From Chitinophaga pinensis (GTDB taxonomy: Bacteria > Bacteroidota > Bacteroidia > Flavobacteriales_D > Crocinitomicaceae): a stretch of DNA of 64,000 nucleotides. The number at the start of each line of letters is the position of its first letter. Position 1 is the stretch's first letter. The DNA lies in NCBI GenBank assembly GCA_945883825.1, contig CAMCYF010000007.1, positions 1-64,000 on the forward strand. The letters run 5' to 3'. The notes under the pieces are model-generated. The model was not told the origin of the DNA and ran no database searches. It was given only the letters and a program-made list of their open reading frames with translations. The translations under genes and the position numbers were made by a program. Of the stretch, positions 13,275 through 16,919 are shown piece after piece.

Positions 13275-13282
<8 letters not shown>

Positions 13283-14165
13283 TCCATTTTCGGGAGTAGG
13301 AGTTGCTCTTGTAACCCCATTCAAGAAAGATATGTCTGTAGATTTTGAAGCACTTCGAAAATTAGTTCAACTACAAATTCTCGGAGGTACAAATTTTTTA
13401 GTTGTTCAAGGCACAACCGGTGAATCCCCTACCCTTTCTCAAGAAGAAAAAATGGAGATTCTAAAAACTGTTATTGACGAAAACTCAGGAAAATTAAAAG
13501 TCGTTTATGGTCTTGGTGGCAACAACACGCATGCGCTTGGTGAACTTCTAAAAAGTTTTTCTTTCAATTCAAAAGTTGATGGTATTCTTTCTGTTTCACC
13601 ATACTACAATAAACCAACACAAAATGGCATTATTGAGCATTTTAAATACATTTCAAGCTGTACAGAATTGCCAATTATCTTGTATAATGTTCCTAGTCGA
13701 ACAGGTTCAAATATCTTAGCTGAAACAACACTTGCTTTAGCTGAAATCCCAAACATTGTTGCTATAAAAGAAGCATCCGGAAACATGGATCAAATAATGG
13801 AAATTATTCGCTTACGAAAGCCTGATTTTGGTGTAATTTCTGGTGATGATGCCATTACAATGCCTTTAATTGCTGCAGGTGCTGATGGAGTAATTTCAGT
13901 AGTTGCAAATGCATTCCCTGAAAAATTTTCTAAAATGGTTCATGCTTCAATAAATGGAGATCTTGATAGTGCCCGAAAAGAGCATTATGATTTATTAGCA
14001 ATCACAAGAATGTTTTTTGAAGAAGGAAATCCTGGTGGAGTAAAAGTAGCACTTTCAAAACGCAATATAATTCAGGAATTTATGCGTCTTCCGCTAATTC
14101 CTGTATCAGAAAAACTTAGAGAAAGAATTCTAAAACAAACGGATGTAATATTGAAAAACCCATAG
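13275..14165 (+). CDS. dapA: 4-hydroxy-tetrahydrodipicolinate synthase
   Basis: 296 residues, the usual length of this TIM-barrel aldolase. The Schiff-base lysine is Lys165 (IAIKEASGN), the tyrosine that relays protons is Tyr137 in ILYNVPSRTG, and the GTTGESPTLS motif near residue 47 binds pyruvate. It condenses pyruvate with aspartate semialdehyde in the lysine/diaminopimelate pathway. Its start overlaps the preceding unknown gene by eight bases. No terminator was recognised after the stop, but a 480-base noncoding stretch follows. Confidence 0.95.
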
Positions 14166-15033: not shown

Positions 15034-15053
15034 AACTGAGCCTGTCGAAGGTT
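15033..15053 (+). repeat. Short dispersed element, copy 1
   Basis: Contains CTGAGCCTGTCGAAGG. It agrees with the copy at 16477-16492 in 12 of 16 positions (CTGAG at the start and TCGAAGG at the end), in the same orientation. Similar short CTGAG...TCGAAGG sequences are common between genes of many bacteria, which I recall rather than show here. Confidence 0.55.
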
Positions 15054-15488
15054 TAACCATTTAACTATTTAATTTCGCTCACCGCTTAAGCTGTCAATTT
15101 ATGAGAAAAAGCTATAAAAAAAACCAGTAGGCTCGTACTTTTTTTTTTTGGTCTCCACTGACCTATTTTTGAACACTTTTTTGGAGGATTTGGAAAGTAT
15201 TATTAGCTTGTAAAACTAGTTCCAGTAGTAGCAGATCAAATAAACAAATCAGTACAAAAAAGGTTTCAAAATATAAAAAGCTTTTTTATGATTTGTAGAA
15301 AAATTATTTGTTTGTAATAGTATGCGCATTTCTAATATCGTATAACTAAAGTTAAGTTTATTTTATATCGATTAAAAAGCCATCAAGAACCATTATTGAG
15401 CATCGCAATTTTCTATATTAATTTACGCTATTTTACGTGAAAATATGTATTTTTGAAGGTATTTTCACGGTAAATATAGCCTCTTATA
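15034..15488 (+). other. Intergenic stretch of about 455 bases before fic
   Basis: AT-rich, with a 12-base T run near 15129-15140. No gene or RNA is recognised. It contains the first short dispersed element at its left end and the inverted repeat with embedded promoter at its right end, both described separately. Confidence 0.5.
15428..15479 (+). promoter_or_regulatory. Inverted repeat enclosing the -7 element of the fic promoter
   Basis: The left arm at 15428-15445 and the right arm at 15460-15479 are near-perfect inverted copies, sharing a GTGAAAATA/TATTTTCAC core; only two small base insertions separate them. A TATTTTTG -7 box at 15448-15455 lies exactly in the 14-base space between the arms. 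The predicted transcription start (about 15460) falls in the right arm, 30 bases before the fic ATG. This layout is that of an operator where a bound dimer would block RNA polymerase. Confidence 0.7.
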
Positions 15489-16376
15489 ATGATAAACCAG
15501 ACAACAAAAGATAAAATTCAGGCACTGCACCTTCAATATTTGAACTTGGCAAAGGGAAATAAATCAGTATTAAAGGAAATAACCCTTGCTGAAATTCCGG
15601 AGTTGGTTTATAACTCAAACGCTATCGAAAATTCAACCCTTTCATTGGAAGACACAGAAAAAATTCTTGCTGGAGGTATTTTAGCTCGAAAAGTAAATGT
15701 AAGGGAAGTTTATGAAGCCAAAAATTTGGCTAAACTTACTGAATCCATATTAGAAAAAAACAAATCGAGAATAAACATAAAACTAATTTTAAGCTTGCAT
15801 AAAACTTTGCTTACCAACATTGACGATAATATTTCAGGTCGTTTTAGAATTGGCAAAGAATGGGTGCGTGTTGGCAATCACTTAGGTGCAAATCCACAGT
15901 TTGTTCCTACACTTATACAAGAACTAGTTGATAGTTACAACCAGAATAAAATCAGTTATTTTTTAGATGCTGTGTCACATTTTCACGCGGAGTTTGAAAC
16001 CATTCACCCATTTGTTGACGGAAATGGAAGAATGGGTAGAGCGCTTATTAATCTGCAGTTAATAAATTTAGGTTTCCCTCCAATTATCATTCAAAATAAA
16101 AGCAAACATACTGAATACTATACGCTGTTTACACAGTACCAGTCAACATTTAAATTTGGAGGTTTTACCGAGTTATTTGCACTACTATTGCAAGAATCTT
16201 TACACAAAAGAATAAGCATACTTACGGCAAAAAAAATAATTCCACTTGCACTATGGGCATCGCAAAAAGGAGTAAAACCAAACGTTGCAGCCAATAAAGC
16301 CAAAAGGCAAACGATTCCTGCCTTCCGTCTGCGAGAAAAATGGATGATTGCAGAAGAATTTACATCAAGCAAATAA
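15489..16376 (+). CDS. Fic-family AMP-transferase (class II) with C-terminal helix-turn-helix-like region
   Basis: 295 residues. The Fic core motif HPFVDGNGRMGR starts at His173, and the inhibitory alpha-helix motif S43-NAI-E47-N48 is at the N-terminus, which marks class II Fic proteins that restrain themselves in cis. They transfer AMP from ATP onto a hydroxyl of a target protein. The last 45 residues (LALWASQKGVKPN, then TIPAFRLREKWMI) resemble an excisionase/MerR-type winged helix, so the protein may bind DNA; the palindrome over its promoter would be the obvious site. Target protein unknown. No partner antitoxin gene is adjacent. Likely an accessory gene. Confidence 0.88.
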   Translation: MINQTTKDKIQALHLQYLNLAKGNKSVLKEITLAEIPELVYNSNAIENSTLSLEDTEKILAGGILARKVNVREVYEAKNLAKLTESILEKNKSRINIKLILSLHKTLLTNIDDNISGRFRIGKEWVRVGNHLGANPQFVPTLIQELVDSYNQNKISYFLDAVSHFHAEFETIHPFVDGNGRMGRALINLQLINLGFPPIIIQNKSKHTEYYTLFTQYQSTFKFGGFTELFALLLQESLHKRISILTAKKIIPLALWASQKGVKPNVAANKAKRQTIPAFRLREKWMIAEEFTSSK

Positions 16377-16456
16377 TTATTGAATTAGCTAAAAAAAAGC
16401 AATTCCTAGAAAAGAGTGAGAATGAGAATAAAAATGAGAGTGAAGTAAAACAAAGT

Positions 16457-16507
16457 AGAGTATATCTCTTTTACCCCTGAGTTCATCGAAGGGTAGCTCT
16501 ATACTCT
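16457..16507. terminator. Nested hairpin between fic and ssrA, possibly a shared terminator
   Basis: An outer AGAGTAT/ATACTCT pair (16457-16463 with 16501-16507) surrounds an inner TACCC/GGGTA pair (16472-16476 with 16491-16495). It lies after the fic stop on one strand and beyond the ssrA 3' end on the other. T tracts are short on both sides, so termination is a guess. The inner part is the second copy of the short dispersed element. Confidence 0.4.
16472..16495 (+). repeat. Short dispersed element, copy 2
   Basis: Contains CTGAGTTCATCGAAGG, matching the copy at 15037-15052 in 12 of 16 positions and in the same orientation. Its ends CCCT and AGGG can pair. The two copies bracket the fic gene. 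Confidence 0.5.
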
Positions 16508-16519
16508 CACTCTGTTTTG

Positions 16520-16919
16520 TGGAGTCGGAGGGGTTCGAACCCTCGTCCAAACGACGAATACTCTAGCTTTCTACATGCTTATTTCTTGATTGGTTTTAGA
16601 TTGTGAGACGGACAAGAACACCCAAGCTCCCAACTTAGCTTCTAAAGTTTCACCAGCGCTTAGAAACATCACACCGGCTAGCCTGATGGGATGAACTTCC
16701 GATTGGTAAATCTAACAGGCAGAAATTTACCGGAAGTACTCGTCCAACCTACTATACTTCGATCGGATAAAGCCAACTAACTATCAGTTAATTAAGCAGC
16801 AAGTGCGTATGACGTATTGTCAATTATTGTTCGAGACAAGATATTTAAGAGGTTCATCTCAACCCTCTGCATGCTGACACTTGACTACCGCTATCGCTGT
16901 CAAATCCAATGTCGACCCC
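16520..16919 (-). ncRNA. ssrA: tmRNA (ssrA)
   Basis: The 5' end GGGGTCG pairs with the 3' end CGACTCC to form the tRNA-like acceptor stem, and the T arm GGGTTCGAACCC lies just inside the 3' end. The gene is about 400 bases, does not encode CCA, and ends with discriminator A. The tag frame ends ...DNTSYALAA followed by TAA at about 16792; the resume codon cannot be fixed by eye, so only this end is certain. tmRNA with SmpB rescues stalled ribosomes and marks the product for proteolysis. A TATCTTTG promoter lies upstream. Confidence 0.93.

What the first reader, a model, noticed from the sequence alone, without database searches (positions are those of the whole stretch)
15428..16376. Fic gene whose promoter sits inside a palindrome and whose C-terminus looks DNA-binding
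Seen: near-perfect inverted arms at 15428-15445 and 15460-15479 enclose a TATTTTTG -7 box exactly in their centre, just before a class II Fic gene. Seen: the Fic protein ends with an excisionase/MerR-like stretch (WASQKGVKPN, then TIPAFRLREKWMI). Inference: the Fic protein could repress its own gene through its C-terminal domain, and its AMPylation state might switch that repression, which would make a single-gene self-regulated toxin-like switch. I do not know a described system built this way, but similar Fic-HTH proteins may exist.
Basis: partly seen in the sequence, partly recalled or inferred. Interest (0 to 1): 0.62.

Follow-up and report, generated by a model that had tools for sequence, protein, structure and literature searches.

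The report
Self-repressing Fic gene with conserved operator
A lone bacterial gene for a protein-modifying enzyme carries its own DNA-binding tail and a matching, strictly spaced DNA site over its start, and this pair has been kept together across very different bacteria, so the gene most likely switches itself off.

Summary
The palindrome (15429-15476) and the -7-type box in its centre are real. The Fic protein (15489-16376) is class II; its last ~50 residues are predicted as a MerR/excisionase winged helix (BldC, lambda Xis). The decisive evidence is comparative: GTGAA-N22-TTCAC lies upstream of 67 of 78 fic genes (window and 77 homologues, 48-98% identity, several phyla; N22 in 64) against 0.19 by shuffling; five of six homologues found later have it, the sixth with one mismatch. 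The site stays while the promoter type around it differs. In this genome it occurs once. Six homologues without the upstream site carry the palindrome at the 3' end of fic; one deletion derivative keeps only operator plus winged helix. Autorepression by a dimer is the best explanation. It has precedents: CccR, a class II Fic-HTH protein, represses itself through a wide palindrome; in CbFic2, DNA binding switches AMPylase to deAMPylase. New here are the winged-helix type, the operator, its breadth across phyla and the 3' sites. That AMPylation state controls repression is untested.

The parts
15429..15476 (.). operator palindrome, two ~13-bp half-sites; core CGTGAA (15436-15441) and TTCACG (15464-15469), GTGAA-N22-TTCAC
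   Evidence: the only CGTGAA-N22-TTCACG in the 2.16 Mb genome
15448..15455 (+). TATTTTTG, Bacteroidota-type -7 box (TAnnTTTG, consensus recalled) between the two half-sites
   Evidence: same box at the same central place in 14 of 47 Bacteroidota-type loci
15489..16376 (+). class II Fic protein, 295 aa
15615..15632 (+). inhibitory helix motif SNAIEN (residues 43-48), invariant in the 53 aligned proteins
16005..16031 (+). Fic motif HPFVDGNGR (residues 173-181)
16227..16373 (+). C-terminal winged helix-turn-helix (residues 247-295), MerR/excisionase type
16278..16304 (+). predicted recognition helix (residues 264-272)
   Evidence: conservation
16517..16919 (-). tmRNA gene (ssrA) just downstream, 3' end facing fic; context, not part of the module

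Best explanation
The locus is a self-contained one-gene regulatory module. The Fic protein, as a dimer, places its two C-terminal MerR/excisionase-type winged helices on the two half-sites (about aantta-n-CGTGAAAa, 27 bp apart) that enclose or abut its own core promoter, and so blocks RNA polymerase and represses its own gene. The enzyme part is an auto-inhibited (class II) AMP-transferase that acts on an unknown target. Shown by computation: the operator, its spacing, its link to this gene, the predicted fold, and purifying selection. Inferred: dimer binding, the repressing sign, and toxin- or defence-like use of the enzyme. Only by analogy with CbFic2: DNA binding favours the deAMPylating, harmless dimer.
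For: Site upstream of 67 of 78 fic genes (window and 77 loci), N22 in 64, N21 in 2, N23 in 1; 100 dinucleotide shuffles give mean 0.19, largest 1. Homologues found later: 5 of 6 exact (N22 in four, N23 in one), the sixth N23 with one mismatch. In 150 related genomes the pattern CGTGAA-N22-TTCACG has 35 sites: 13 upstream of fic, 4 beside fic deletion remnants, 18 elsewhere, against 31 for the backwards control, so no wider regulon shows (my count). Of the 16 genomes with fic, 13 have the exact site, one has it with a mismatch, two are cut by contig ends. Where a promoter box is found it overlaps or abuts the operator: TAnnTTTG in 22 of 47 Bacteroidota-type loci (shuffles 3.3, largest 9), 14 at the palindrome centre; TATAAT in 13 of 17 other loci at +41 to +52 (shuffles 2.2, largest 7); TAnnTTTG in 0 of those 17 and TATAAT in 2 of the 47. 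Winged-helix fold. dN/dS 0.08-0.21 in 8 pairs. The half-sites change together at positions -3 to -7 (e.g. -3/34: 32 of 40 complementary against 21.7 shuffled) but not at 6-14 in the spacer (relatedness not removed). L098 is the only one of 83 readable proteins with acidic residues in the recognition helix (N269R, K270E, K272E, R273N), and it has no operator. Precedent: CccR.
Against: No binding or expression data. Six homologues (L066, L068, L070, L071, L075, L080) lack the upstream site and carry it at the 3' end of fic, where it cannot block the fic promoter. L072, L074 and L089 keep the recognition helix but show no site with at most one mismatch. 25 of 47 Bacteroidota-type loci show no TAnnTTTG and 4 of 17 others no TATAAT, so the promoter overlap is seen in part of the loci. 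The CTD matches have modest Z (6.6) and Foldseek E 0.16; Pfam finds HTH_17 in only 4 of 53 members, best E 0.0055, not in the window protein.
Confidence: 0.82

Rival explanations
1. The palindrome is primarily a recombination or insertion end of a small mobile fic unit; the winged helix acts like an excisionase and autorepression is secondary or absent.
For: Homology between the window and unlinked relatives starts in or beside the left arm and stops near the fic stop codon in many loci. The palindrome sits at the 3' end of fic with N22 in 7 of 73 loci, against 0.2 from synonymous shuffles, largest 2 in 300. L082 and L092 have it at both ends, L092 with N21 at both; L029 has an N23 match at its 3' end that may be chance. 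L080 has fic followed by two fic end-remnants, each with the palindrome, alternating with toxin-antitoxin-like genes. Lambda Xis is among the best fold matches.
Against: Apart from fic itself the commonest neighbour cluster covers 8 of 81 sources, so no shared mobility gene shows within 3 kb; recombinases were not searched for one by one, and L052 has an integrase nearby. Fic is not a recombinase. A functional operator alone would give the same edge of homology. The near-identical relative L030 shares sequence beyond both edges (window 15371-16535). Promoter boxes of two types are fitted to the site.
Confidence: 0.08
2. The palindrome is the binding site of a host regulator, and the winged helix of Fic has another target.
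For: No direct proof ties Fic to the site.
Against: One site in the own genome, beside fic; in 150 genomes sites away from fic do not exceed the control; the site accompanies the gene across phyla.
Confidence: 0.05
3. The palindrome is an RNA hairpin in the 5' leader or an attenuator.
For: Strong fold in the window; outer arm positions stay complementary.
Against: With the -7 box in the centre the transcript would start inside or after the right arm, so the hairpin could not form. Positions 6-14 inside the arms show no pairing excess. The core is kept as sequence in 67 of 78 loci; it is constant by selection of the sites.
Confidence: 0.03
4. The short inverted repeats make an invertible promoter.
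For: Promoter between inverted repeats, as in phase-variable Bacteroidota promoters (recalled).
Against: Forward -7 box in 14 of 64 spacers, reversed box in 1 of 64 (L084); a 14-nt interval is far shorter than known invertible promoters (recalled).
Confidence: 0.02

Closest known systems
CccR of Yersinia pseudotuberculosis (PMC9755527)
   Same: class II Fic with C-terminal HTH; dimer binds AGATAATCAT-N26-ATGATAATCT near -35/-10 of its own promoter and represses it (passages, and part 1 of 2 of section 10 read)
   Different: operator sequence and spacing differ; sequence match to the window protein covers residues 112-196 only (PDB 7xux, taken by me to be CccR from its length, E 9.9e-5); CccR is a T6SS effector, which was not tested here
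CbFic2 of Coxiella burnetii (PMC10628234, PDB 8cil)
   Same: Fic with C-terminal winged HTH (abstract and passages read)
   Different: DNA effect reported in the passages seen is on AMPylation/deAMPylation, not on its own promoter; sequence match weak (E 0.00021)
SoFic / PADLOC PDC-S04 single-gene defence candidates
   Same: Fic core matches PDC-S04 E 3.8e-36 and SoFic E 1.2e-27
   Different: best stretches lie within residues 16-246, without the winged helix; NCBIfam SoFic equivalog score 32 against a cut-off of 550
Human/animal FICD
   Same: closest Fic-core structures, Z 25.9, 26% identity; best sequence matches
   Different: no such C-terminal winged helix; TPR part and ER location (recalled)

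Membership tests
class II Fic proteins | Fic motif HPFx(D/E)GN(G/K)R | tested here: met
   HPFVDGNGR; H173 P174 F175 D177 G178 N179 G180 R181 invariant in the 53 aligned proteins
class II Fic proteins | inhibitory (S/T)xxxE(G/N) helix N-terminal to the Fic motif in the same chain | tested here: met
   SNAIEN 43-48 invariant in 53
class II Fic proteins | AMP transfer activity | not testable with these tools
   only active-site conservation and dN/dS 0.08-0.21
CccR-type self-repressing Fic-HTH | C-terminal HTH DNA-binding domain | tested here: met
   predicted winged helix, BldC Z 6.6, Xis Z 6.0; a prediction, not a binding assay
CccR-type self-repressing Fic-HTH | wide inverted repeat over its own promoter | tested here: met
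   promoter by consensus only
CccR-type self-repressing Fic-HTH | binding to the site and repression | not testable with these tools
CccR-type self-repressing Fic-HTH | type VI secretion of the protein | not tested
   no secretion genes were looked for
class I FicTA toxin-antitoxin | inhibitory motif on a separate small antitoxin encoded next door | tested here: not met
   motif lies in the same chain; no ORF of 60 aa or more between 15034 and 15488 on the fic strand; shorter ORFs not listed
SoFic (NCBIfam NF046030) | score above the family cut-off | tested here: not met
   32.1 against 550
MerR/excisionase-like winged helix (Pfam HTH_17) | profile match | tested here: inconclusive
   4 of 53 members, best E 0.0055, none in the window protein; fold supports it

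The most novel reading that the evidence does not exclude
The DNA site is the antidote. Binding to an operator in cis forces the Fic dimer that removes AMP, so the module is a one-gene toxin-antitoxin system whose 'antitoxin' is a 48-bp DNA address. That would explain why some homologues that sit in foreign operons still keep the same palindrome at the 3' end of fic, and why one genome kept operator plus winged helix after losing the enzyme part. Cells or phage DNA lacking the address would be exposed to active monomer.
Probability: 0.13. Interest if true: 0.87.

Novelty: new variant of a known kind. Interest (0 to 1): 0.6.

Why it matters
By the account in PMC9755527 (passage) class II makes up about 80% of Fic proteins, and almost nothing is known of their function and control. 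Here a whole subfamily comes with its likely DNA target already read out by evolution, in lineages from Bacteroidota to candidate-phylum bacteria. That gives a ready-made test of whether DNA binding, dimerization and AMPylation are one switch; the deletion derivative, the charge-changed L098 and the 3'-site homologues are natural variants for it.

Tried and rejected
Plasmids (tblastn, limit 1e-40): no match. Phage records (limit 1e-20): one distant Fic, 32% identity. So phages and plasmids do not seem to carry the module, as far as these searches reach.

A wider regulon: not seen, since sites away from fic (18) do not exceed the backwards control (31) in 150 genomes (my count).

A general link to type I restriction-modification: only 9 of 81 sources (window plus 80 loci, at most 3 kb of flank for the loci) have relatives of the HsdS or HsdM representatives by clustering. 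A controller of hsdR may hold for L041 but is not general.

Operator conserved after gene loss: between scars L106 and L123 flank 77/92, operator 47/50, remnant 56/89. The scars were found through the operator, so I make no claim; for the same reason the count of four scars is biased to those that keep it.

Covariation of recognition helix and half-site: only L098 (site absent) and L083 (K270M with GGTGAA..TTCACC, N21). Searches for more such relatives gave 3 and 0 further genomes, and the three keep helix and site. Too few to call. Loss of K272 alone (several loci) goes with no visible change of the core.

A possible dispersed repeat (CTGAGCCTGTCGAAGG at 15036) is single-copy. A Pfam scan of a 50-residue HsdS piece found nothing; repeated with the whole ORF. 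The lists do not exclude unlisted families.

Rows dropped: L047, L051, L096 (gene cut by a contig end) from the 80 named loci; the scan kept 80 of 139 relatives. One search examined 73 (frame or flank too short in the others). One search used the 64 N22 sites, 40 after removing near-copies.

Literature: in the listings I saw no description of this operator or of a Fic protein of Saccharibacteria; the library holds open-licence PMC papers only.

Full report
What is there. The window's genome (2.16 Mb in 46 contigs) is taken to be Bacteroidota from its nearest named relatives. Between a dapA-like gene (13275-14165, named by eye) and ssrA (16517-16919, minus) lies a lone fic gene, 15489-16376. 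PF02661 matches at 1.2e-19; no Pfam family is found in the C-terminal part of the window protein. The palindrome 15429-15476 is real and has TATTTTTG in its middle.

The protein. AlphaFold2 on 53 aligned proteins gives mean pLDDT 91. Residues 3-246 are a Fic core closest to FICD (Z 25.9, 2.4 A over 238 residues, 26% identity). Residues 240-295 modelled alone (mean pLDDT 87, 94-95 in the core) show strand, two helices and a two-stranded wing. The best matches are BldC bound to DNA (Z 6.6, 2.4 A over 51 residues) and lambda Xis (Z 6.0, 1.5 A over 47), followed mostly by other excisionases, phage terminase DNA-binding domains and MerR-type regulators. Foldseek E-values are weak (0.16), and Z under 8 is not proof; the agreement of the list is what persuades.

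The operator. A scan of one genome for each of 84,980 species found 139 relatives, of which the best 80 were kept, at 48-98% identity. Within 300 nt upstream, 67 of 78 genes (window plus 77 loci; three cut genes dropped) have GTGAA and TTCAC at N22 (64), N21 (2) or N23 (1); shuffles give 0.19 on average and never more than 1. L033 has it with one mismatch. In 40 non-redundant sites the consensus half-site is about aa.tta.CGTGAAA (GTGAA itself is fixed there by how the sites were found). The outer half-site positions change together on both sides (-3/34: 32 of 40 against 21.7; -5/36: 31 against 21.5; all positions outside the core 382 against 349), positions 6-14 do not, and the very centre is less symmetric than chance (6 against 18.7). 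This fits a dimer on two half-sites 27 bp apart; relatedness was not removed from that test. Six homologues found later, none used to define the motif: four with N22, one with N23, one with N23 and one mismatch.

Breadth. The tree of 84 proteins puts Saccharibacteria, code-25 phyla, Spirochaetota, Fibrobacterota, Verrucomicrobiota, Bacillota and Actinomycetota outside a group of 49 rows that is almost wholly Bacteroidota; two unnamed same-phylum rows (L256, L257) lie far off. Many contigs are metagenome bins and their names may be wrong (e.g. 'Limnohabitans' L032 inside the Bacteroidota group). The four code-25 genes need TGA read as glycine 2-7 times, which fits residence in such hosts. The gene is sporadic, query genomes included: 16 of 150 near relatives, 4 of 395 of the phylum, 1 of 198 and 4 of 245 in two other orders.

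Operator and promoter. TAnnTTTG (Bacteroidota -7 consensus, recalled) occurs in the operator-to-start stretch in 22 of 47 Bacteroidota-type loci, 14 times at the centre as in the window; TATAAT occurs in 13 of 17 other loci just downstream of the right half-site. The operator is the constant and the promoter type varies with lineage, in the loci where a box can be named. This is the architecture of a repressor site and speaks against an RNA hairpin and, with 14 forward and 1 reversed box in 64 spacers, against an invertible promoter.

Exclusiveness. CGTGAA-N22-TTCACG occurs once in the own genome. In 150 genomes there are 35 sites: 13 at fic starts, 4 at fic remnants, 18 elsewhere; control pattern 31 (counted by me).

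Decay. L103 keeps operator plus the first codons. L106 and L123 keep operator plus a decayed fic end, aligned at scores 56 and 57 against shuffled maxima of 24 and 29. L109 keeps the operator followed by an open 55-codon frame holding only the winged helix; 6 synonymous and 4 other changes from the window are too few to say whether it is still used.

Relocation. L066, L068, L070, L071, L075 and L080 lack the upstream site but have the palindrome at the end of the fic reading frame; L082 and L092 have both. Against synonymous-codon shuffles, 7 of 73 with N22 compares with 0.2. In L066 and L075 fic overlaps the upstream gene, so it probably has no promoter of its own there. A roadblock, control of a downstream gene, or a need for the site as such are all open; this is the part that simple autorepression does not explain.

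Literature. CccR (PMC9755527; passages and part 1 of section 10 read) is a class II Fic with C-terminal HTH that binds a 10-bp inverted repeat with 26-bp spacer near its -35/-10 and represses itself. CbFic2 (PMC10628234; abstract and passages read) shifts from AMPylating monomer to deAMPylating dimer on DNA. Kinch 2009 (PMC2686095; passages read) suggested that HTH fusions may regulate expression of fic. PMC12894286 (passages read) repeats the CccR account. So the kind is known; this is a new variant with its own winged helix and operator. PADLOC's Fic-based models match the core, which makes a defence role plausible but unproven.

On checking, one call was added: it confirmed L256's single mismatch and L098's singular helix, and showed no module in the viral loci.

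Noticed in passing
L080 1140-2726: fic followed by two fic end-remnants, each with the 3' palindrome, alternating with minus-strand toxin-antitoxin-like genes (HTH_3 protein with a small partner without Pfam match; PIN-domain gene with DUF6364 partner); looks like an array at the fic 3' end.
   Followed up: partly
L041 1-6197: order hsdM-like and hsdS-like (by clustering), operator, fic, hsdR (HSDR_N, EcoEI_R_C) with fic and hsdR overlapping: Fic could act as a controller of restriction, like C proteins.
   Followed up: partly
L052 1728-6080 and L062 786-6460: fic lies between two hsdS-like genes in opposite orientation with an integrase gene nearby, as in phase-variable specificity loci (integrase by Pfam in L052 only).
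   Followed up: partly
window 15371-16535; L030 3980-4180: L030 (98% identical fic) carries fic plus the last bases of the ssrA 3' end away from its own ssrA, and a second copy of GTGGAGTCGGAGGGG follows: fic may have moved with an ssrA-end attachment site.
   Followed up: partly
L109 1325-1534, minus: deletion leaves the operator and an open 55-codon frame that is only the winged helix.
   Followed up: yes
L021 4006-4642, L026 2215-2523 and 4201-4785: other toxin-antitoxin-like genes (HepT-like, nucleotidyltransferase, zeta toxin) next to fic in the window's genus (Pfam run on the two L021 genes and the L026 zeta gene only).
   Followed up: no
window 16430-16525: stem-loop between fic and ssrA, moderately stronger than shuffles (z -2.0), possibly a terminator.
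   Followed up: no
L256, L257: two same-phylum homologues on a long branch, with N23 spacing (L256 with one mismatch) and NAARRQ recognition helix: spacing may be lineage-specific.
   Followed up: no
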